Origin: Muricea muricata
Taxonomy: Eukaryota > Cnidaria > Anthozoa > Malacalcyonacea > Plexauridae
Assembly: GCA_963855995.1 (NCBI GenBank)
Contig: OY979721.1
Location: 16,037,893 to 16,101,892, forward strand
DNA: 64,000 nucleotides
Direction of reading: 5' to 3'
In this document: positions 30,001-50,200 of the stretch, piece after piece
Layout of the letters: every line of letters begins with the position of its first letter
Position numbering within the stretch: position 1 is the stretch's first letter
The notes under the pieces: generated by a model
The model's database searches: none
The model's input: the letters and a program-made list of their open reading frames with translations, nothing else
Told to the model about the DNA's origin: nothing
Translations under genes and position numbers: made by a program

Positions 30001-33000
30001 TCTGTTAAGTGTTTTGGGCAAAGTTAAATAAATAAATTAAGTATTGATCATCTGACTGTACAGGAATTGCGTGGCCATCTTGAAACGTGCCTTATGGAGG
30101 GGACGCAGCTGTTTGTTACCGATGTTGATCTTACCGCCCTTGTTGAAGATGACAGGTTTTATTATGTCTTACGAAGCGTACCAACCTTTTTAAACGCCAC
30201 TAATCCATTTAAATTACTGGTGAGTTAACCTTGCTGGGCAAAGGGGACTTCTGATAATATTTCGCCAGAAACAATAAACATGAATGTGTCCATAGTGCAA
30301 TATTTTATTTATAAATTTATAAAGTACAATATAATTGTCCAGCGTGGAGCTATTCTGAAAATATGTTCATTTTTAGGTTGGTGAACATGAGATTGAGTGT
30401 CAACCTTCATTTAGGTCAGGATTACATTTAATACTTTGTGATATGATGTCTCTCGCTATGGACTACTGTTTAGTAAACATATAGAGATAATTAAACACTC
30501 TTGAGTCGGAATCAGAATTTCATAACATCGCTAATACATGTTTATGCATTGCTTGATCTTTTCGTTAGATTGTTTATGTCTACCACAGTGCCCGCGTATC
30601 GTGTTCCTGCCGAACTGAGTGCATTTATAAATGTGATTGAGATGTACCTGTCACGTGATGGTCTGGAAGAAATGTTTCTAGATAGATTCATGGAAATGGA
30701 GAAGCCTAGGATCCAGGACTCTCGACTACAAACTGTATCGGTATGTGTCAAGATCTTGTATGTGATAAGAACATTGAAGAGTGCGTATCCTGCTAGTCGT
30801 GTATTGGTTTTCAATGAGATTTACATAGATATGTGCCAAATTTGTATGAGATATTTACATAAATATGGCAATTAAGTTTTGGAGATGATTCGTAAATGTC
30901 TCATATTCCAAAAGATCAATGACCTAATATTCATTCTTTAATACTGTTAGTGTAGTTCTATTTACTGTTTTTTGACTGATATAAAGCCCTCCCCCCTGCG
31001 TTATGATACTGACCATGAGGTTAAGACCCAGTAATCAGACTCGGTTCCTAATATTTTTCTGAACATTTCCCTTCAGGAAATTGTGCGGTTGCTAAAATTG
31101 AAGGATGAATCAGAGAGTAAATTCCTGGAAGTTTTGTTAAAAAACAGACAGTTCTTACATGATCTTGTCACCATGAAGAAAATCTCATCCATAAGAAGGA
31201 ATTTTGAAGAAACCGTGGAAAGGTAGTCCGATGTTACCATCACATCCAAGGATACGCTTCTTTCTTGAAGCATTCAATGATTCCATTTCTTTCCAATTTC
31301 CAGCATCACCCGAGCTGAACAATCCGAAGCGTCTCTGCTTCACTCACGTGAGGCATTCCGACCAATCGCACGTCGTGCTGCTGTGTTGTTTGACGTCACA
31401 CGTCACATGAGAGAAGTGAACGAGAACTACACTATATCACTGGCACAGTTTTTGAAGATATTTGATACAGCCATTCAACATTCTGAGAGGTTTGTCAATT
31501 ACTCTTCAAAAGCGTGTTCATTGTTTTCACAAACTGTTCTCACACATGTTTACTTAAAGTCACGTTTACTTTAGATAATTTTTTTGCTTCTCACAGAACT
31601 GCGGTGAAGGCGGTAGCAGAAAGAGTTGGACAAAGTGCTTTCTTCTTCGCTGCCCAGGGTTTTTTAGAAAAAGATCGAACACTGTTTGCATTATTGACTG
31701 CGATTGAGGTAGCTTTATATAAAAAAGAGTATTGAAGTTGACAGATCACTATATTTTATTGTTTTATTTAATATTTGTTTTATGATATAAAAATGTTTCT
31801 TTTTGTTTGTAGGTTGAAGATTCATTTGGCCGTGTTTCTGCAGGAGATCGGGAGTTTCTCCTGTATCCCGCCTACGGCTCTGCAGTTAAGACCGCTCTAA
31901 GTCATTTTGCGTTCACAACATCACAAACAAAAATAGTTAGTGCAAAAAAACCTTTTGATTGGATGACTGATGAACAGTACAACGGATTGCAGGTATAAGT
32001 GAAGACTGAAGTTAGCAATAAGTGAATTAATACCAGACTAATAGCCGTTTAGCAATAAATGAATGACCAATTAACATTCATTAGCAATAAATGAATCAAT
32101 ATTTTTTGACTTTACTATAATTACATTTATTTAGTAAATTTTAAACGTTATTGAATGCTTTCTAGTTACTTGCGCAGTCATTTGACTGGTTTCAAGATGC
32201 GTTTGAGAAAATGACAAAAGATGGACGTGAAACACAATGGAGACAACTAGTAGAACATGAAATACCTGAAATGGTCGCTTTGCCTGATAACCTCGACGAG
32301 AAGTAAGAAGGATATTAGTTACGACACAATGCTGATGATGTAGTGGTCATTGTGTATACCATGGCCATGTTGGAATGACTATATCATTGACTCTATGTCT
32401 TTTTTTAGATTTACTCCTATGCAAAGGTTCATGATCATCAGAGCTATTAGACCTGACCGTCTCATTCAGATATCTCGTTCTTTTATTATACAAGGTTTAG
32501 GACGAAGGTATTACGTTGAATATTGAACATTTAAATTATATAGCGAATACAATGTATGCGTGAAGTTTTATTTGTGGAGAAAAGTCACTATACGGTGGAT
32601 GGCCACTTTAATAACAAATCTTGATTATTTCAGATATGCATCAGACCTACCTCTAGATTTAGGCTTTGTTCATCGTCAAAGTGACGCGAAAACGCCAATC
32701 TTATTGTTGTATGACGAGGAATCTTCTACGTTGGAGAGTCTGGTTCGAGACATGGCTGGAAAGAAACAGGTGCTGCCATATTGCTGCTATGTAGAAAGAG
32801 CGTATTACGTAGACATCAGTTGAAAAAAATAAACTTAAAAAAACGACCATTCAGAACCATGTCCATATAATGACAGGCATACCATATCATACCATACCAT
32901 ACCATACCATACCATACCATATACCATATACCATACCATACCATACCATATCATATCATACCATAACATACCGTACCATAAATAAACTCTGTTTTTGCTA

Positions 33001-37708: not shown

Positions 37709-37800
37709 TTATTACACCAAAAAAATGTTAAAATACTACACCCCCGGGCCTGTAATTCACTATAGCAAGAGGGAAATGAAGTACTGGGCGCTGTAATGTA

Positions 37801-38340
37801 TGGAAAGCCATAGCTGTCTTAAGTGATAAAACGTCATTTCATTAGGTGCTTTATACATTATATACGGTGCTTTAAACATGACATGCGGTGCTTTGAGTAT
37901 TATATGCGGTGCTTTAAACATTATATGCGGTGCTTTGAGCATTATATGCGGTGCTTTGAGCATTATATGCGGTGCTTTAAACATTATATGCGGTGCTTTA
38001 GACATTATATGCGGTGCTTTAAACACTATATGCGGTGCTTTAAACATTATATGCGGTGCTTCGAGCATTATATGCGGTGCTTTAAACATTATATGCGGTG
38101 CTTCGAACATTATATGCGGTGCTTTGAACATTATATGCTGTGCTTTGAGCATTATACGCAGTGCTTTCATCATTATACGCAGGTATTTCATCATTATACG
38201 CGGTGCTTTCATCATTATATGCGGTGCTTTCATCATTATACGCGGTGATTTCACCTTTGTACGCGGTGCTTTCATCATTATATGCGGTGCTTTCACCTTT
38301 ATACACAGTGCTTTGAACATTATACGCGGTGGTTCCAGCG
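37801..38340. repeat. Left arm of large inverted repeat, 21-bp satellite
   Basis: After a unique end (tggaaagccatagctgtctt) come about 24 tandem units of a 21-bp sequence around gctttaaacattatatgcgg. Units near the centre change to tttcatcattatacgc. The right arm (40343-41088) matches it in reverse complement, unit by unit, including the variant inner units. Because 21 is a multiple of three, several frames stay open; these are not genes. Confidence 0.9.
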
Positions 38341-38890
38341 TCATTATACTCAGTGAGCCAGTACCTTTGGTCAGCGTTGTGGAATGTTACACGATTCTGC
38401 TATACGTCATGTCATCAAGAATATCTAAACACTCATCGAATATTCATAGGGCGATCACGTGTCATTTCCTGCTTCGAAATTTACAAGTTGAGCGCAGTTA
38501 TAAAACGGTAAAATATATAAGACTTTTCTGGCGTTTTAAATCGAAAGTAAACCCAGGGCACAGTATAGGGTATAAACAGTAGGGCCACTCAGCAGTGCAA
38601 CATGTCCCCCTATTTTTATGCACGTATCTGGCCAGAATAATGGCGGAACGGCCAGTTCAGCGTTCCTATTGGCCAGAAAAGGCAATTGACTGGCCAGAAC
38701 CTGCATAATGAACATGCGTAATGAGACATGCGTGGAGACACAAACTTCAAAGGTTCCGACTCGAGTGGCCTTTCTGTTTATTTCTATTCTGTGCCCAGGG
38801 GGTTTGAAATATGGAACAAATACTGCAATCTTTAAATTTGGGGACTTTGCGTGGCCGATTTGAAGCACAGCGAATAGAACCGCAGGCAGT
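38341..38890. other. Spacer between the arms, no gene seen
   Basis: Unique-looking sequence with normal base composition between the left satellite and the A/T-rich core. It has a few ggccag words and no convincing exon. Confidence 0.4.
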
Positions 38891-40342
38891 TTTAAATTTA
38901 ATGGGAAAAAAATTGAAAAAAAATTTGGGAAAAAAAATTTGAAAAAAATTCGGGAAAAAATTTTGAAAAAAAATTTGGGAAAAAATTTTGAAAAAAGTTA
39001 AGGAAAAAAATTTGAAAAAAAAATCTGGAAAAAATTTTGACAAAAAAATTGGGAAATCATGAATAATTCATGATATTTCATGATTAATTCATGAATATTC
39101 ATGATAATTCATGAAATCATGAATAATTCATGAATTTTTCAGGAAAAAATCTTGAAAAAAATTCCGGAAAAAATTTTGAAAAAGAAATTGGGAAAAAATT
39201 TTTTGTCAAAACTTTTTCCTAATTTTTTTTCAAATTTTTTTCCCAAATTTTTTTTCAGAATTTTTTCCCAAATTTTTTTTTCAAATTTTTTTTCCCAAAC
39301 TTTTTTTCAAAATTTATTCCCAAATTTTTTTAGAATTCTTTTTCCAAATTTTTTTTTCAGAATTTTTTTCCAAATTTTTTTTCGAAATTTTTTCCCAAAA
39401 TTTTTTCCCAAATTTTTTTGGGAAATTTTAAAAAAAATTTGGGAAAAAAATTTTGAAAAAAAAAATTATTCATGAATGATTCATGAATAATTCATGAATT
39501 TTCCAGGAAAAAATCTTGAAAAAAAATTCAGGAAAAATTTTGAAAAAGAAATTGGGAAAAAAATTTTTGTCAAAACTTTTTCCTAATTTTTTTTCAAGAT
39601 TTTTTCCTGAAAAATTCATGAACTATTCATGATCATGAATTATTCATGATTTTCATTAATTATTCATGATTATTCATGAAATATTCATGAATTATTCATG
39701 AATATTCATGAATTATTCATGAATTTCCCAAAATTTTTTTCAAAATTCTTTCCAGAATTTTTTTTCAAGATTTTTTCCCAAATTTTTTTCAGAATTTTTT
39801 GTCAAAGTTTTTTGTCAAAATTTTTTCCCGAATTTTTTTCAAATTTTTTTCCCAAACTTTTTTCAAAATTTTTTCCCAAATTTTTTATTCAAAATTTTCC
39901 CCAATATTTTTCATGAATTATCATGAATTATTCATGAATATTCATGAATTATTCATGAATTTCCCAAATTTTTTTTTAAAATTTTTTCCAGAATTTTTTT
40001 TCAAGATTTTTTCCCAAATTTTTTTCAGAATTTTTTGTCAAAATTTTTTCCCGAAATTTTTTTCAAATTTTTTTCCCAAACTTTTTTCAAAATTTTTTCC
40101 CAAATTTTTTGTTCAAAATTTTCCCCATATTTTTGTCAATTTTTTTTTCGGAATTTTTTCCCAAATTTTTTTTTTAGAATTTTTTCCCACATTTTTTTTC
40201 AAAATTTTTTTCCAAATTTTTTTGTTCAAAATTTTCCCCAATATTTTTCATGAATTATCATGAATTATTCATGAATATTCATGAATTATTCATGAATTTC
40301 CCAAATTTTTTTTTAAAATTTTTTCCAGAATTTTTTTTCAAG
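38891..40342. repeat. A/T-rich satellite-like core with ATTCATGAAT palindromes
   Basis: Runs of the type aaaaaatttgggaaaaaatt on one strand switch to the complement near 39210 and again later, separated by blocks of the palindrome attcatgaat (39060-39130, 39465-39500, 39620-39725, 39910-39960, 40245-40300). The block starting attcatgaatttcccaaa recurs at about 39712, 39951 and 40290, giving higher-order repeats of about 240 and 340 bp. It is non-coding; the Phe/Lys-rich open frames are composition artefacts. Confidence 0.85.
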
Positions 40343-41088
40343 ATGATGAAAGCACCGCATATAATGATGAAAGCGCCGCGTATAATGATGAAATAACTGC
40401 GTATAATGACGAAAGCACTGCGTATAATGCTCAAAGCACAGCATATAATGTTCAAAGCACCGCATATAATACTCAAAGCACCGCATATAATGTTTAAAGC
40501 ACCGCATATAATGCTCGAAGCACCGCATATAATGTTTAAAGCACCGCATATAATGTTTAAAGCACCGCATATAATGTTTAAAGCACCGCATATAATGTTT
40601 AAAGCACCGCATATAATGTTTAAAGCACCGCATATAATGTTTAAAGCACCGCATATAATGCTTAAAGCACCGCATATAATGCTCAAAGCACCGCGTATAA
40701 TGTTTAAAGCACCGCATATAATACTCAAAGCACCGCATGTCATGTTTAAAGCACCGTATATAATGTATAAAGCACCTAATGAAATGACGTTTTATCACTT
40801 AAGACCATTGACATATATACATCTGGACTGCCAGCTCGGCTTTGAAAAGCGTTATCAAAGATGGCCGAAATATGAGAGTGTTTGCTCATGAAGTTGACTG
40901 CTGACCAGTATTTTTTGTATTATTTAAGAGCCAGCGATGTTCAATCACTCTCATATTCGTCATTTTTCGTCAGTATTCGTCAGCCTTCGTGATTTTCAAC
41001 TGATAACGCAAAATTCAAGCGAAAATATTGCGAGCAGGCAGTCCAGATGTATTTATGTCAATGCTTAAGACAGCTATGGCTTTCCATA
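40343..41088. repeat. Right arm of large inverted repeat
   Basis: Reverse complement of 37801-38230: about 21 satellite units, then gcacctaatgaaatgacgtt, a block matching the left arm, interrupted by a 258-bp MITE, then cagctatggctttcca. The arm starts abruptly at 40343 inside a satellite unit, where the A/T-rich core joins. Confidence 0.9.
40806..41063. mobile_element. hAT-like MITE in the right arm (258 bp)
   Basis: The termini cattgacatatatacatctg and cagatgtatttatgtcaatg are inverted repeats of about 30 bp with few mismatches. An 8-bp duplication, cttaagac, flanks it (40798-40805 and 41064-41071); 8 bp is the hAT hallmark. The left arm carries the same site once (gtcttaag, near 37815), i.e. 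unoccupied. No transposase. Confidence 0.85.
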
Positions 41089-41267
41089 GTAATGGCAGAG
41101 ACCACTGACCTCAATAATAACTTTAGTCGCCATTTTATCGCCGATAATTACGGGACATATATTTCGTGGTATTCGCATTCGATTCATCAAAACAAATTAA
41201 AGTGAGCGTAACAAATGAGAGGAGACAATGATACCCATTGAAAATCATTTCATTTATTTTCTATGCT
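41089..41267 (+). promoter_or_regulatory. Presumed 5' UTR/promoter of MPP8
   Basis: The 180 bases between the inverted-repeat arm and the first ATG hold tagtcgccattttatcgcc, which contains a YY1-like gccatttt word. No TATA box at a useful distance was seen. Assignment is positional. Confidence 0.3.
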
Positions 41268-44200
41268 ATGGAGGCAGAAGATAATGTTTTTGAAATAGAA
41301 AGAATTCTCGATAGTTCTGTTGGAAAGGTTTGCAATTTTTCTTGTTTAAACTTGTACTTGATTTTTCAACATATGTCATGTGAATTTTGTGTATAATCAT
41401 AGTATAAGTGTATTTTTATCAAATACGCAAGTAGTAAATAGCACTGCTTCTGTATCGTCAATGATTGGATGTGTAATGATATCTAAATATTTTGTTGAAG
41501 AGCGGAAAGATATCACGTAAAATTGGCAGATAGTAGAAGTTGTTATAGTATTGTAAGCGTTTAGCATAGTACATTGCTGTTCGCGAGCGTCCTAGACTGT
41601 TCGAAGTGTTCATTCTGAATACGTGTCGTCCTTACGCTTGACTGTATTAATACCTTTAGCTGTAGTGATCTCTCTTGGCCCTTTTTTAGTACATTCGAAA
41701 TGTTAGTCATTTACTAATGTTTTATGTACTAAAACGTGGCTGCATAATAAAGGTCTATTAAATGATAAGGGCTAATGTTTAAATGGCTTGGTCTATTAAA
41801 TTAGTTTTGTGTATTAAAATCTCTATAGGGGCTTGATATCAGTTAACATCTACTATACAGCTTTTTAGTGTAAGGTAGAGAGAGGATACATCTGCCAAAT
41901 TTTAATTTGCTGTCAATTTTACAGTACAAAATATCAATAGTACAATATTGTTTTTCTTTGCATCTTTTCATAAGTATAAACATGAAAAAGTAGCAATTAT
42001 TACTTTTGTAACATGATTAATTTTGTAACATTTGCAACTAGTTTGCTACTTGGAAACTTGTAATGACCAGGGAATTAATTTTAAAAAAATGCATCATAGA
42101 CTGTATTTGGGGGGGATCAGTATAATAGATTATATTATACACTGTTTGGAAGTTCTTTGCCTTTCCCCCCCCCCCACCCCTTGATGAAATTAGCCAGTTT
42201 TAGTTCATACAGTAGCCATTTCCTAATTGAGACAGAGAGAGAGCACCAGTCATGAAACATCCAATGAATAGTGCAAAGGTTTTTTCTACATTTATATTTT
42301 CTTTCTCCATTTTTAAATTTTAAAGATTCCTACCTCTTTACAATGCCCTGCAAACATTCTTTGCAGTTCCCAGTTGGGAAATGGCTAATTCCCCCACTTT
42401 TGACCAACTCTTTTGATAAATTGTTTTCAAGGGCATAAGATATTATCGTGTAAGATGGAAAGGTTTTGGAACTGAAGAAGACACTTGGGAGCCTGAAGAA
42501 AATTTATTTGATTGTAAGAATGTTCTCGATCAATACTGGAAGAAAGCTGCTCAAGCGAAAAAGGCAAGGGTATGTAAAAGAGTATTTCTTTGTGCTTGAC
42601 ATGGCAGAAAACATAGTTAATCTCTTTAGTCGTAAAAGCTGCAGGAAAGCTTGCAGAGGTAAATATGTTGCCTTCAGGGTTAACAGAATAGCCTGCTATG
42701 TGTTGCAAGATTGTAATTTTTAAAAGTAACATGGCACTTAACATACAGAGTGCATAAAAAGGTAAATTGTATTTTGGAGTGCTCTAGGCCACTCAATAGT
42801 CTGCATACAGATGGGAAAGTTTTTCGTTGAAATTACACGTTTTTGTAAAATTTGAAGAAAATTGAGCTAATACAAACCAGATTAGAAATATTGGCCAAAA
42901 TTACATTTTTTCACCGTCGGGAATTTATCAAAAATCTTTTGGAATTTAATCTCATTTAGGAAATAAAATTGACAAATTTTAGTAAGCTAAATTAATACAT
43001 CTTATTAGCGATCTTAATTGTTTCTCATGAAAGATAAATGATTAATGGACTTTTCTGAGTTGAAAATATGCTATTTTAAAAATATGCTATGTTCAATTTT
43101 TATTCAAATTTCACGAAAATGGTGACAATCGAAAGCTAAAAGTCTGGTATTTTCAACTGTGAAAGAATGATTTCTATAAATTGTGTAATGAATGCGTGTA
43201 TTCCAAAGTTCAATTACCTTCTTTTTATACACCCTGTTAACTCAGTTGTACATACAACAAAGTCTTTGTGTGTTTATGCATCATTATCCAATAAACGAAG
43301 TCGTTCATGTGACAGTATGTTTTATACTAGGTACAAGATAATACATGTGGATTTTTCACAATATGTATATTTACCCGAAATGGATGAATTTAAAAGTTTG
43401 TACTGTACTTGTATCGCCTTTAACACAGCTCCGTTTTCATCATTATTCTAGGCTAAGAAGCGCAAGTCTGAATCAGCGTCTAAATTTGAAACTGCCAAAG
43501 CAAAGAAAAAAAAGAGTGGACGAACCACAAACAATAGCACAATTGCTCGTATTGACTCTAGCTCATCACAAGAGGGACAAATTATACTTCCAGGGGAAGA
43601 GAAGAAACCATCTGATGATAAGAATTCAAAAAGAAAACAAAAGCGTAGATCGGAAAAAGGAATACGAACAAAAAAGCGCTTGGATCCCAAGCAAGAAATG
43701 AAAACTTCCAGTAAAGGCAAAGAAAATACGACAAAAAGGAAAAAGGGAAAAGGCGACATTGATAAAAATTGCTCAGATGAAAACAAAGGAAAGCAGTCTG
43801 ATGATACTAAGCAAATGTTAGACGAAAATGAAAACAAAGCAGAGCAGTCTGATGGCACAAAGCGAATGTTAGACGAAAATGAGAACAAAAGGGATACTAA
43901 CTACAACATTAGCGTGGAGGATAAGCCTACAGATGAAGCAACATGTAGTAAATATGATTCAAATTTACAACATGAAAATTCTGGTGAAAGTTTTGGAGAT
44001 AAAAGTCTTGAAAGAAGAAGCTGGTCCTCTTACGAAGTTTCACCTGAATATGTTCCAGAATATTGTGATGAAACGTTAGCTTATGATATTTGTGATGAGG
44101 AGCAAGATTTTGATTGTTTTGGAGATACCGGGTACTTTATTAAGGATAGTGTTGGATATGAGCAGGATAGTTATTTCGATCGAAGAGAGAGTCTTGATGT

Positions 44201-47200
44201 GGATAATGATGAAATCAAATGTGATAAAGATGGCACAAAAGCTGAGGATGATGGGAAAGAGAATGAGGGTCACGTGGACGATGATGAGAATCACGTGAAC
44301 GATGATGAAGATCACGTGGACGATGATGAAGATCACACGGATGATGATGAAGATCACGCGGATGATGACGAAGATCACGCGGATGATGATGGCGATCACG
44401 ATCATAACGATGAAGATAACGTGGACAATATTGATAAAGGGGATCACGATGGTAATGGGGATCGCGATGATGATAAAGATTATCAGGTGAACGATTGTCA
44501 CGTAAATGACGACCAGGTGAACGACAGTAAAAATCGTATGAATGATGATGGAAGCCAACTGAAAAAACTTGATGGGCTTGTGGATGACAAGAGCAAAATT
44601 GGATCAACGTCACCTTTGAGGGAAATAGAAAGAGATACCGAGATAGAGAAGAGTGGAGGGAGAGATACTTCTGAATCTGTATCGGAAGAAAAACGTCAGA
44701 TAAGTAGTGCAACTTGCAGGGACACTGGTGTTAAAGAGAATCAGGAGCCCAATGAGGACGCTTCCTTAAAGACCAGTGATGGACAAGAGCAGGAGAAAAG
44801 TTTAGATAAACTCGTTGGCTGCAACACAGGAGCAGAGCTGATTGCAAAGAAAACCGACAATGTCTTAAAAAGTCGGCAAAATGACGATGTCAAGCATGAT
44901 CTTGGTTCGTCTGATGTTGTTGTTAACACTGTAAGTGGTGATCAAGTAAGGACAGTAGGGAACAAGCTAACACTTAAAATGAGGTCAAGTAGTTCTGGAG
45001 AGAGTGCAGGTCTTACTGATGGGGAATGTATGTCACCTGAGTTTGCTAAACTACCGGAACCAGTTAAAGGGTATTTCGACAAAGTCTTTGCTGAAAGAAT
45101 GGACGATCAAAATACAATAGAGCCATCAACACAAGAGAAGGGAGATAAAGGGAGTGAAGTTATAAAAGATGATACTGAAAGTGAACTGGAGAACAAGGCA
45201 AACGACGACTCGTGCGTTGAAGTGCACGAGGATGAGAAAAATCTTTGTGAAATTATTTCAACGAACGCAGACGTTAATCCTCCCGAGAAACCCGCGAGTG
45301 TCGATGGTATTAGACAACATGGCAGTGTAAAAGATCAACCACCCATTCAGTTGGCGAAAGAAACGAGTGCCTTCGGTATCAAAACTGTTGAAATAAATGA
45401 TAACTATAATGGAAATAATAAGTATTCTACCAAGGATATTTTGTCAGATACATCTCTGAGCAAGTCAGGGACTGTTTCAAATATTGTTGATACGAAGAAG
45501 CAGATATACTCAAAGACAGAGAATAGTTCTGTTGAGAAGGAACGAAAGTTGTCTGAGGAAGAAACGGCACATTGCCTGTTGAATTTGTCCAGTGTTAGAC
45601 TTGGTAAATCAAATAAAATGGAAACAATTGAAACAAATGTTCCTGCTCCTAAGGACAAGACAGACAACTTCGTAGAAAGTTCCATAACAGGAGACGTGGA
45701 GATAAGAACGTTTGATCAATTGGAATCCGGGAATGAACTGAGTAATATCAAACCAGAAGACGACCCTACAAAGATGGAAAATGTAAACAAGGATAAGCAA
45801 CAATTCCCTCTCAAGAGAAAACCGCATGAAAACAAGAATAGTGCGTTAAGAACTGAAAAGAAGTGTAGAGTACCTTTCAACTTGCCTTTTATTGAAGAAG
45901 ATTGTAAGGAAGTATTAGATATTTTAGATCATGGTGCGAAACCAGCTGGAAAGGGAGCAATAGAGCATTCAGTTGCTCAGTTAGGCTCGCGGAAGAAACA
46001 AATAGTGCCACATGTGCAAGCCACTTCCCAGAAATCTTCAGTCAACTTGACATCCGCGTCCAACATTACTTTAGAACAGAAGTCGACGACTACTTCAAGT
46101 CATGATCATTCAGAACTTACGTATACACGTGAAACAACTAGCGCCACAGCCAATATTAAAAAGCATGAAACACTTACGATGTCTAAGATACGCTTGCCAT
46201 CGTTGCTCATCTCTGAAAAGAAGTCGGAAAGTGTTGAAGTGGAGAAAACTAAAGATAACACGGAGAACATGTTGGCTATAGTTAGCGTTAGCAATGTGTC
46301 AAACTCTGGCTTGATTTCGTCTCAGGATAGCTTATCTTCACCAGTACTGTCATCAGTTTCTAACGAGAAGGTCTTGCAGTCCCAGTTTATCCAAACCGTT
46401 AAACAACCTTCCACTCCTATTACATTAAAACATAGTTCACCATCAAGTGGTAATGTTGAAGTTTTGAAAATCACGCAGGTTTATGGTAAAGGCAAGTATG
46501 ACGGAACCATACAAGGAGTTGATCCAGTTTCATGGAGTGGTGAAACCACAAAGACATATCCTTACTCGTCACAGTTTAGTCCCTCGGGAACTCTGCATAT
46601 TAACTCGAACCTGTACCCCAACACGCCAAGTGGGAACACCTTTATTGTTGGCCATTTACACGCCGTTTCACCGAGCTCTTGTATAAGTCAGTTTTCGCAG
46701 CAAAATTTTTCAACACAATCTAGCACTCACCCGAACCAAAAGCCATTTTCAGCTGTTGCTGGTATCAACTGGTATCCAGACAATAACCAACCTGGGCCAC
46801 GGCTTGTGCCTACCTTAAACGTTCTACCAAAGCCGATCTATTATGTCCCAGAGTTTCCTGCATCCGCGCAGCATTCGAAACAACCATTACACCATCATGT
46901 GTATGCCAGAGCCTTACAAGAAATGGCCAAGAGACGACAGATTAATAGTTCAGGCCAGTCAGTTTCATCTGAGTTTATTAACCAGGACCAATCACCACCT
47001 TTCGATGCGGATAGGACATTGTATTTGAAACATGCAGGAGGTATGAGTTCACAAGCAATCCAAGCAGAGGTGCAAGATGGAAACACTAATGTATATCCCA
47101 GTATTATTAATCAAACGGATGTAGGAGTCAGAAGATTATCAAATAATATAAAGGTTACCATTGCTGATTCTGAAAAGAAGGATGATTTATTATCAGTTAC

Positions 47201-50200
47201 TAAGCTGAAGAGTAGCGAAACCAAATTTTCATCGAAGGTTAGTGAAACGAAGGAAGTAGATGTAATTGCTTCATATCCCAGTGTGTCTTCGACAGGCAAT
47301 GAAAATTGTTCTACAAGCAAAGAAAATACACTGCAATTTATTGAGAATGAAAATTCGGATGAGAAGATTTCAGGCAAAAAAGAACTTGAATGTGATTCAG
47401 ATAAAAGTAAAGAGAGCAAAAGTGAATCAAACCTGTCGGAATCAAAGGCCCAACAACAGATTTTGGAAATAACCGATTGTAAGAGTTGCAGTGCCAAAGA
47501 CGACGCTGCAAAGGTGAAAGATAAAAATGTTAATGAAGACAAAAATAAAGGCGAAACTTCCAAGTCAAGCTCTGAATCAAATAAGTTGAAGTCGTCTGTC
47601 GTATCGGAGTCCAAACAATCCTCTTTGAATGAGAATGAACTAAAAATTGTCAGTCAAAAATCATCAAGCGGCTCTGACACGCGATCATCTGGTAACAGGT
47701 CGAGGGGAGGCTCAAAGGAGCGGGCTAGAGACTCGCCCCAAGATCATAAAGAGAAAAGAAGTGATTCTGAGAAATCGCGTGGAAAGGACAAAGAAATTTC
47801 TCGGAAAAAGGAAGATTCGTCAAAACGTTCTCGCTCGAAGGAACGTGACCGGCAAAGTAAACACGATTCGAAAGGAAAAGAACTTAAGGTTCGTATAAAA
47901 GTATTCATAAACATCTTTATTTCTGAATTTTTTATGTCTGCATTTTTTTCTACTGCGAAGCAAGGTATTTTCCGTGTTGTTTGTTTGTAGAAACAAGAAT
48001 CAAGTGATTCGGAGTTGGAATTTGATTTTGATGAGCACAGTCCTGGCGAGGTGATCAATGAAAAGGTTTGTTTTTTTTCTTATTTACTTTGTCCTCAAAA
48101 TCAACAGATGTGTTTTAACCTTGTTGGGGTATAGAGCCATATCTCGCTAAGAAATTAATTAAGTTTACCAGAGTATAAGACAGCACGAAGATATATTACA
48201 AATTGTGTTTTGAAGGAACACATTATAACGTAAACTTTTCTTACTGTTTTAAAGTCAGAGAAAATGGAAGTGTCACAATCTGGGATTCCCATGGCCACAT
48301 CATTGCGTAAGTATTCTGAACATGCAATTCAATCATATACAGTCATAGCAATTCATAGAACTCAACAAATAGATAGTCGTATCAGTAGATATCAGATAAT
48401 TTACTGTGCTTAAGAATTAAGAACTCGTGTAAGATACAGTCAGTGACATCCTGGTTCAAAGTTTTTGGTCAGGAGTATTTTCCCAAGTGTATTCTCAACA
48501 ATAATAGGTGAGGTAAAGTCTGCCATCAAGCAAGGAGACTCTGCCACAGTTCTGGCATCTTTAGCTGGGGGAATGAATATTGATTCACAAGATAGTGTCA
48601 CTGGGATGACATTATTAATGAGAGCTGTGTCCTTTGGCCAGGAGAACATCGTGAAATTATTGCTTAATCATGGCGCCAATATTAACATCAAGGATAACAC
48701 TGGCAGTACCCCTCTTATTGCAGCCTGCGAACAGGTAAAAGTTGAAAATCTACTGGTTGTACTTTATGTTATGGTCGCTTGATTTTCTTAGACTATACAA
48801 GCCAAGTATTTTTGTTGTAGGGGTTTGAAAATATTGTGTCTCTTTTACTCAATGTTGAAGTTGATATCAATGCCAAACAATCAGCTAGTGGTGAAACAGC
48901 GTTAATAAAGGTAGGTTTTTAAAAATGTCATTGACTTCAGAGGTTGGGGGAGAATTGATAATACCATGTAACCACCTTCACATTACTATCTATGTATTGT
49001 CGTATATCGTAATTCTGTGAGCTTTTGTGCGTCATATTTAATCCAATATAGAACATGTCGAGCCAGCTTTTTTGCTCATTCAGCTGTTCAACTGTGACTC
49101 GTTTGATCATTCATTTGGTCTTCTCTTTCAGGCGTGCATGAAAGGACATCACTCAGTGGTTTCCATGTTGCTAGCTCATGGTGCTGACTGTCAGATGAGA
49201 AGTGTTTCTGGCTTAACCGCTGCCCAGTTAGCTGTGCAATGTGGGCAATTCGAGATAAGAGATCTACTTGAATCCTACAGCAAAAAGTGCGTAATTTGAG
49301 TGTCAAACGAAATTAGAGAGGTTCAGATTTGACTTCCTCTGCCACTACCGCTACCTTTTCCCAGTTTTTAAACAATTTGATTGGTTAATCGGGTAGGTCT
49401 GGTGCATCTAATTGACTGAAAGATTGATTAAGGCAGCGGTAGAGGTATTGGAAGCCAAATCTAAATTTCTCTATTTATACTTGATAGCGTTACCAGTGAG
49501 AGCGACGCTGTGATTTATTAACACGGACCTGCTCTATAATTACTAGATTATACAGTATATAAATACTATATATAATAGATATAAATACTAGATTAAGTAT
49601 TTTTCTAAACAGACAAACAGATATCACTACACATCCACTTCATTACACCGAAAATATATTCCTTCAAATGATGTTTCCCCTTTCCAGACTTCAACGTTGT
49701 GTGGAGACAACGATCGCCAGTTGTTTATGTGATTCAAGCAAACTGATGTATCCTCCGTTGCTACCGTTTGTCAGTTTATATCCAGCTGAGGGCCAGGAAT
49801 TCACGTATCATTTTCATTGCAGCAACGTGCTTCTAAGTATGTTTATACAATCATAAACTCACCATATACCCAACTGATCTGACAGTGAGTAAAAGGCGTG
49901 GAACTAGCTATCGAATAAAAATCCATTTTTCTGTTTTAATCACTTATATCTTTTGTTTTCATTTATGAAACTTTGTAAAGGAAATCATGTTCAGTAAAGA
50001 AAATTATAAGTCCACCAAAAATTTGGAACCAAAGTAAATTATACTTAATAAGAAATTTGCTAGTTTGGCTCGGAAAATGGATTTCTATTTGACAACTAGT
50101 GCCAGTTCTTTTCCGTGTTTTCAGATCAACTAGACAGTGGTTGAAACAACATAACATAACATTGTATGCAATAACTACCAAATGTTTTGGTCTGATTTTG

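What the first reader, a model, noticed from the sequence alone, without database searches (positions are those of the whole stretch)
37801..41088. 3.3-kb inverted repeat built from a 21-bp satellite
The two arms match in reverse complement unit by unit, including the same variant units (tttcatcattatacgc type) near the centre. They therefore arose by inverted duplication of an existing array and not by two independent expansions. The right arm begins abruptly inside a unit where A/T-rich DNA joins, marking a rearrangement breakpoint. Such a structure could extrude as a cruciform, stall replication or produce dsRNA between the dynein and MPP8 genes.
Basis: seen in the sequence. Interest (0 to 1): 0.7.

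Follow-up and report, generated by a model that had tools for sequence, protein, structure and literature searches.

The report
Satellite-armed transposon copy, IS3EU type
The inverted repeat is one copy of a young "jumping gene" family whose two ends are each built from rows of a 21-letter DNA repeat; the copy shows no gene of its own, and a related copy elsewhere in the genome that does carry pieces of an enzyme gene has the same kind of repeat row at the end that was read.

Summary
The structure is real, but it is not a local rearrangement. Window 37799-41088 is one copy of a dispersed DNA transposon: TATGG..CCATA tips, a 6-bp target-site duplication (GTAATG), and terminal inverted repeats (TIRs) made of a 21-bp array around an A/T-rich core. 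The genome holds 115+113 tips (control 0). Of 81 paired ends listed, 71 have exact 6-bp duplications, against 0.96 expected. The arms come in two haplotypes; 16 of 21 elements could be classified at both ends, and each has one of each. The window's left arm is 99.3% identical to an arm on another contig, 92.7% to its own partner. The abrupt right-arm edge is an internal deletion.

Tips and duplications match the IS3EU superfamily. A gene-bearing relative with the same 29-bp tip and an exact duplication has a diverged 21-bp array of about 22 units in the TIR read, then a broken SAM-HTH-integrase frame; a HECT domain lies on the other strand. Another element holds an integrase match in an open frame. 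So the array is an old part of the TIR; its inferred role is a phased multi-site platform for the transposase. I did not find this design described for IS3EU (partial library).

The parts
37793..37798 (+). Left target-site duplication GTAATG
37799..37844 (+). Left TIR tip TATGGAAAGCCATAGCTGTCTTAAG..., IS3EU-type TATGG terminus
   Evidence: terminus signature
37845..38331 (+). Left 21-bp array, 23 units, alpha haplotype FEBAGGAaaADACIKLSHMNHpO
38340..38897 (+). Inner unique TIR domain (about 330 bp) interrupted by a nested 235-bp insertion; boundaries approximate
38559..38793 (.). Nested 235-bp mobile element (CACAG..CTGTG ends) flanked by CCCAGGG repeats; one of 20 places identical over all 235 bp among 40 scored
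38898..40345 (.). A/T-rich core: 24-25-bp and 236-bp period AAATTTTTTCCC/TTCATGAA satellite, itself partly palindromic (75% over about 1 kb)
40340..40352 (.). Internal deletion junction: array unit cut at ...TTTCATCATC joined to the core; the innermost units, the inner unique domain and an unknown amount of core are missing relative to full-length copies
40349..40776 (-). Right 21-bp array, 20 units, FEBaGJAAAAAADABIKlQR; assigned to the beta haplotype by its units Q and R (assignment weaker than for the left arm)
40777..41088 (-). Right TIR tip, split by a nested 258-bp insertion
40806..41063 (.). Nested 258-bp element with imperfect TIRs (CATTGACAT..), 8-bp duplication CTTAAGAC on both sides
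   Evidence: copies elsewhere not tested: unanswered
41089..41094 (+). Right target-site duplication GTAATG

Best explanation
A copy of a young, non-autonomous, Foldback-like DNA transposon family of IS3EU type, inserted between a dynein heavy-chain gene and the next gene, flanked by a 6-bp target duplication, and later damaged by two nested insertions and an internal deletion (shown). No gene is seen in it, and it was presumably moved in trans by the SAM-HTH-integrase transposase of gene-bearing relatives with the same tips (inferred from shared tips, TSD length and array). The 21-bp array is an old part of the TIR, since a gene-bearing relative has it too (shown for one TIR of one element). 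It most likely serves as a row of transposase-binding sites spaced two helical turns apart (inferred, about even odds). Arrays gain and lose whole units, and the A/T core expands, by slippage or unequal exchange (inferred from lengths).
For: 35-mer tip at <=3 mismatches: 115 forward and 113 reverse, control 0. 71 of 81 adjacent tip pairs have exact 6-bp duplications, 0.96 with shuffled partners; 66 different target words among the 71. TA..TA termini and usually 6-bp TSD, or TAYGG..CCRTA and 6-bp TSD, are given for IS3EU (passages). Interiors: 51 of 58 sampled middles are A/T satellite. Gene-bearing copy at C1:110960159-110966158 (same 29-bp tip, TSD GAGCTG): array of about 22 units, 79% like the window family over 470 bp, then one frame with a weak SAM match (E 0.0023, below cut-off), a weak HTH match (0.013, below cut-off) and the start of an rva_4 integrase (3.5e-4, below cut-off); a second piece matches rva_4 at 8e-34; IS481 3.4e-6 and IS3 0.004, both far below their curated cut-offs; HECT on the other strand at 6.2e-7. 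C1:24263231-24263788, inside element C1:24262039-24268432 with TSD CGCATG, matches 187 of 194 rva_4 positions in an open frame of 453 aa. Array length equals 16 modulo 21 in 27 of 36 arms.
Against: No phylogeny with reference IS3EU transposases was possible. Transposase binding to the 21-mer and movement in trans are untested. 10 of 81 pairs lack an exact 6-bp duplication: 5 differ by one base, 5 do not match at 6 bp (one of these matches at 7 bp). The transposase frame in C1:110960159-110966158 is broken by a gap. The window's right arm is less tidy than the left: its best match among the arms is an alpha arm (L057R, 96.2%), its unit string is 5 edits from both haplotypes, and the beta call rests on its last units (1 against 3 mismatches over four units).
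Confidence: 0.9

Rival explanations
1. Local inverted duplication of a pre-existing 21-bp satellite array.
For: Arms share unit order and 92.7% identity; an abrupt breakpoint exists. The right arm is not cleanly of one haplotype.
Against: The same two-armed structure recurs on many contigs with target duplications, with one arm of each haplotype in the 16 of 21 elements classified at both ends. The left arm is 99.3% like an arm on C4 but 92.7% like its partner. 93 of the 100 listed satellite dimers (537 in all) lie within 8 kb of a transposon tip.
Confidence: 0.03
2. Assembly fold or collapse artefact.
For: Inverted repeats are prone to mis-assembly.
Against: Arms differ by 7%, the window copy has its own GTAATG on both sides, and 71 other elements have matching target duplications.
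Confidence: 0.01
3. The 21-bp arrays are passive satellite expansions inside TIRs with no role in transposition.
For: Unit number varies freely (15-40 among 36 arms), and the core satellite also expands (elements to 18.2 kb). No binding data.
Against: An array of about 22 units with nearly the same unit consensus persists in a gene-bearing relative although 21% diverged; 27 of 36 arms keep the 21-bp register; two of four Galileo TIR repeats bind its THAP domain (abstract and section 2.6).
Confidence: 0.35
4. Another superfamily with 6-bp duplications (for example Polinton or Dada) mobilises the family.
For: 6 bp is also the characteristic TSD of Polinton; Dada's 6-7 bp is recalled.
Against: TATGG..CCATA termini are IS3EU-like, and the gene found inside same-tip elements is an rva_4 integrase with IS481/IS3 similarity.
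Confidence: 0.05

Closest known systems
IS3EU superfamily (IS3EU/GingerRoot)
   Same: TAYGG..CCRTA termini, 6-bp TSD, integrase-like transposase related to IS481/IS3 in the gene-bearing relatives
   Different: Long TIR with a 21-bp tandem array and a Foldback-like derivative; SAM-like N terminus and HECT cargo. Not mentioned in the IS3EU passages that I saw
Galileo (P superfamily, Drosophila)
   Same: Long internally repetitive TIRs, arm lengths varying by tandem units, non-autonomous copies; two of four repeats bind the THAP domain
   Different: Other superfamily; repeats of about 210 bp, at most three per TIR, in the F group of D. mojavensis
Tetris (D. virilis foldback)
   Same: Three-part TIR: outer domain, tandem array, inner domain; no transposase in the copies; middle part variable (passages)
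   Different: About 220-bp repeats, superfamily unsettled, and it seeded longer free arrays; here the listed part of the dimer search shows almost none
Oyster satDNAs CgiSat35 (690 bp) and CgiSat47 (129 bp)
   Same: Tandem repeats labelled DNA/IS3EU in a table of PMC8268682 (passage), so a satellite-IS3EU link has been noted before
   Different: Much longer units; no TIR array or foldback structure described in the passages seen
FB (Drosophila) and TU (sea urchin) elements
   Same: TIRs made of short tandem repeats (recalled, not tested)
   Different: Other termini and TSD lengths (recalled)

Membership tests
IS3EU | TA..TA termini, TAYGG..CCRTA | tested here: met
   The window copy and fetched whole copies begin TATGG and end CCATA exactly where the target duplications begin. 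The genome counts required this tip, so they do not test it on their own
IS3EU | 6-bp target-site duplication | tested here: met
   71 of 81 exact; window GTAATG
IS3EU | Integrase-type DDE transposase related to IS3/IS481, in elements with these tips | tested here: met
   rva_4 inside C1:24262039-24268432 and C1:110960159-110966158; no transposase is seen in the window copy itself
IS3EU | Clusters with reference IS3EU transposases in a tree | not testable with these tools
   No reference IS3EU sequences at hand
Foldback-type element | Long TIRs containing tandem repeats, around a variable core | tested here: met
Foldback-type element | No coding capacity in the copy | tested here: met
   By inspection, the long frames in the window copy are translations of the arrays or the A/T core; they were not scanned against a family library
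Conventional satellite DNA | Long free-standing arrays | tested here: inconclusive
   537 exact dimers genome-wide against about 570 expected from about 110 loci; 93 of the 100 listed lie within 8 kb of a tip, 6 of the other 7 form one inverted pair. This speaks against large free arrays, but 437 places were not listed

The most novel reading that the evidence does not exclude
IS3EU transposases with an N-terminal SAM-like domain polymerise along a TIR array of 20 or more binding sites spaced exactly two helical turns (21 bp). This would be a filament-type transpososome in which the tandem array is the specificity device, and from which gene-less, satellite-like elements that collect at the ends of the smaller contigs have evolved.
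Probability: 0.15. Interest if true: 0.75.

Novelty: new variant of a known kind. Interest (0 to 1): 0.42.

Why it matters
It links a short-period tandem repeat to a named transposon superfamily through a gene-bearing relative that carries the same repeat; for Tetris no transposase-bearing copy was found. It also gives a natural series of 15-40 phased units for testing what TIR arrays do. For this locus it replaces a "rearrangement" with an ordinary insertion.

Tried and rejected
Searching for the transposase with NF033577 returned 67 places of 3,024 candidates; the 8 loci read are Gypsy-like LTR retrotransposons by their frames (label from my reading, not from a family scan). A 15-bp tip with a different continuation gave 5 places; three are one-base shifts of the family tip, L059 is an older family copy (78% over 231 bp), and L062 is 73% alike over 127 bp only. 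The 15.8-kb copy is A/T-core expansion in the 6 kb read, with no gene seen. Arm-to-arm homogenisation in the inner domain is weak: 0.72% within elements against 0.84% with random partners, p 0.03, 14 elements; larger contrasts included badly aligned rows. Rows left out: WINL, L046L, L046R, L048R, L050L, arms without a found inner domain (WINR, L040L, L040R, L045L, L052R), and L048L by distance. The unit-letter strings run out of register for some arms (for example L047R, L051L), and WINR there is cut short by the nested insertion; one search gives it in full.

Full report
Observation. The window holds two inverted 21-bp arrays at 37845-38331 and 40349-40776, 92.7% alike over 463 bp, separated by an A/T-rich core. 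The right array ends inside a unit. The repeated arms are about 0.5 kb each.

It is one copy of a mobile family. A 400-bp query from the left arm gives 80 matches, with 40 scored of 310 candidates. The 35-bp outer tip occurs 115 times forward and 113 times reverse, with 0 in the reversed control. Three searches with a free 6-base prefix counted 40 + 51 + 108 = 199 exact 29-bp tips, of which 191 were listed; the 8 unlisted ones fall at the end of the last list, on C15 or later. Pairing neighbours gave 81 elements of 372-18,226 bp (median 3,926) and 29 single tips. 71 of the 81 have identical 6-bp flanks, against a mean of 0.96 with shuffled partners. Of the other 10, five differ by one base and five do not match at 6 bp; one of these five matches at 7 bp (L046). 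The window copy is not among the 81, because its right tip is split by a nested insertion; its flanks are GTAATG on both sides.

Anatomy. Full-length copies have a 46-bp tip, a 21-bp array, an inner unique domain of about 330 bp and an A/T-rich satellite core. L041 aligns with its own reverse complement over its whole 2,901 bp at 86.7%. The 36 arms with a measurable array hold 15-40 units, and 27 of the 36 keep the same length modulo 21. The window copy lacks the innermost units, the inner domain and some core on the right, and carries two nested insertions. In place of a "rearrangement breakpoint" this is an internal deletion; the joined pieces share the letters ATC (read by eye).

Two arm haplotypes. 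Unit order shows an alpha array (...DACIKLSHMNHPO) and a beta array (...ABADCCIKLQRMNHPO). Of 21 elements (20 fetched plus the window), 16 were called at both ends and each has one alpha and one beta arm; 5 have an arm that could not be called, one of them (L053) because its end was not fetched. One uncalled arm (L043 left) mixes diagnostic units. The window left arm is clearly alpha: 99.3% over 541 bp to an alpha arm on contig C4, and 2 unit edits from alpha against 8 from beta. The right arm is called beta by its units Q and R, with 1 against 3 mismatches over its last four units. Against this, its unit string is 5 edits from both, and its best match is an alpha arm (L057R, 96.2%) ahead of a beta arm (L050, 93.6% with a one-unit gap). 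Whatever the right arm's class, the left arm is closer to arms elsewhere than to its partner, so the inverted duplication predates the spread of the family. The inner domain differs from consensus by 0-1.7% in 31 of 32 arms aligned, so the family is young; the 32nd did not align.

Superfamily. A 2023 paper gives TA..TA termini and usually 6-bp duplications for IS3EU (PMC10045372, passages). A 2025 paper gives TAYGG..CCRTA and 6 bp for fungal members (PMC12730594, passages). Of the 61 pairs not fetched, the middles of 58 were sampled: 51 are A/T satellite and 7 are not. Of the other three, one was read in part and is A/T satellite (L064) and two were not sampled. Among the 7 are four elements on contig C1. 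In C1:110960159-110966158 (TSD GAGCTG) the left TIR has the same 29-bp tip and a 21-bp array of about 22 units, 79% like the window family. It is followed by one frame with a weak SAM match (E 0.0023, below cut-off), a weak HTH match (E 0.013, below cut-off) and the start of an rva_4 integrase domain (3.5e-4, below cut-off). A second piece matches rva_4 at 8e-34, and about 75 domain positions between the pieces are missing. The first piece also resembles IS481 (3.4e-6) and IS3 (0.004) transposases, far below their curated cut-offs. A HECT domain lies on the other strand (6.2e-7). A family search scored 150 rva_4 places of 1,177 candidates. One, in a 453-aa frame without a stop, lies inside C1:24262039-24268432 (TSD CGCATG); another lies 2.2 kb from a tip at C1:30.7 Mb.

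Mechanism. Shown: insertion with a 6-bp duplication, no gene seen in the copy, and an array shared with a gene-bearing relative. Inferred: mobilisation in trans by the SAM-HTH-integrase protein, and use of the array as repeated binding sites. The consensus unit is nearly the same in both groups although individual units differ, and 21 bp is two helical turns (general knowledge). In Galileo, two of the four repeats inside the long TIR bind the transposase's THAP domain (PMC3688188, abstract and section 2.6), and unit number differs between the TIRs of one copy (PMC3573991, passages).

Is it also a satellite? The exact 42-bp dimer occurs 537 times, close to about 570 expected from 103 in 20 elements (L053 incomplete) times about 110 loci. 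Of the 100 listed, 93 lie within 8 kb of a tip, and 6 of the other 7 form one inverted pair. I see no large free arrays in that part; the other 437 were not listed.

Distribution. Contigs C1-C3 (256.5 Mb) hold 12 of the 110 listed loci, and the remaining 196.5 Mb hold 98. On seven smaller contigs whose length was then known, 52 of 63 loci lie in the outer 20% at either end. The cause is unknown. Of the 150 rva_4 places scored, 131 are on C1-C3.

Setting. The insertion lies between a dynein heavy-chain C-terminal match ending near 37.1 kb and a long open frame from about 43.4 kb, with ankyrin repeats at 49 kb.

Novelty. The papers library holds one paper with both "IS3EU" and "foldback". In its passages "foldback" occurs only in a reference title, but its table labels two oyster satellites DNA/IS3EU (PMC8268682), so a satellite-IS3EU link is not new in itself. 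Among the 10 papers listed for IS3EU with HECT, none holds both words. The library is partial, so this is weak evidence. I file it as a new variant: a Foldback-like IS3EU family.

Noticed in passing
window 38559-38793: A 235-bp nested mobile element: 20 places in the genome (the window included) share the top score, 100% over all 235 bp, among 40 scored of 3,192 candidates, so a very recent burst. Six near-identical copies sit 2,216 bp apart at C2:68.63 Mb.
   Followed up: partly
window 40806-41063: A 258-bp nested element with imperfect TIRs and an 8-bp duplication CTTAAGAC, hAT-like by duplication length (recalled). Copy search did not complete.
   Followed up: partly
whole genome: The family is about ten times sparser on the three largest contigs and clusters near the ends of smaller ones, while 131 of the 150 scored rva_4 integrase places are on the three largest.
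   Followed up: partly
L073, L076, L075, L110: Gene-bearing or part-deleted relatives encode HECT (L073, L076), SAM-like (L075, weak) and zinc-finger-like (L110, weak) pieces, suggesting a ubiquitin-ligase cargo gene.
   Followed up: partly
C6:793964, C10:13156106, C10:13538185, C11:389543: Four unpaired tips share the same flank CGCGCA, as if one truncated copy were carried in a duplicated near-end block.
   Followed up: no
L040 (C2:2972225-2972596): A 372-bp element of two tips around one 14-unit array, with no target duplication; possibly a recombinant.
   Followed up: no
elements C7:1086412-1102260, C11:661850-680075, C13:12694364-12710055: The A/T core seems to swell elements to 15.7-18.2 kb: the parts read (6 kb, 500 bp, 500 bp) are A/T satellite.
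   Followed up: partly
window 44263-44426: A 21-bp tandem repeat inside the long open frame 43452-47987, with a unit unlike the transposon's.
   Followed up: no
window 32878-32980: CATAC pentamer array, 19.8 copies.
   Followed up: no
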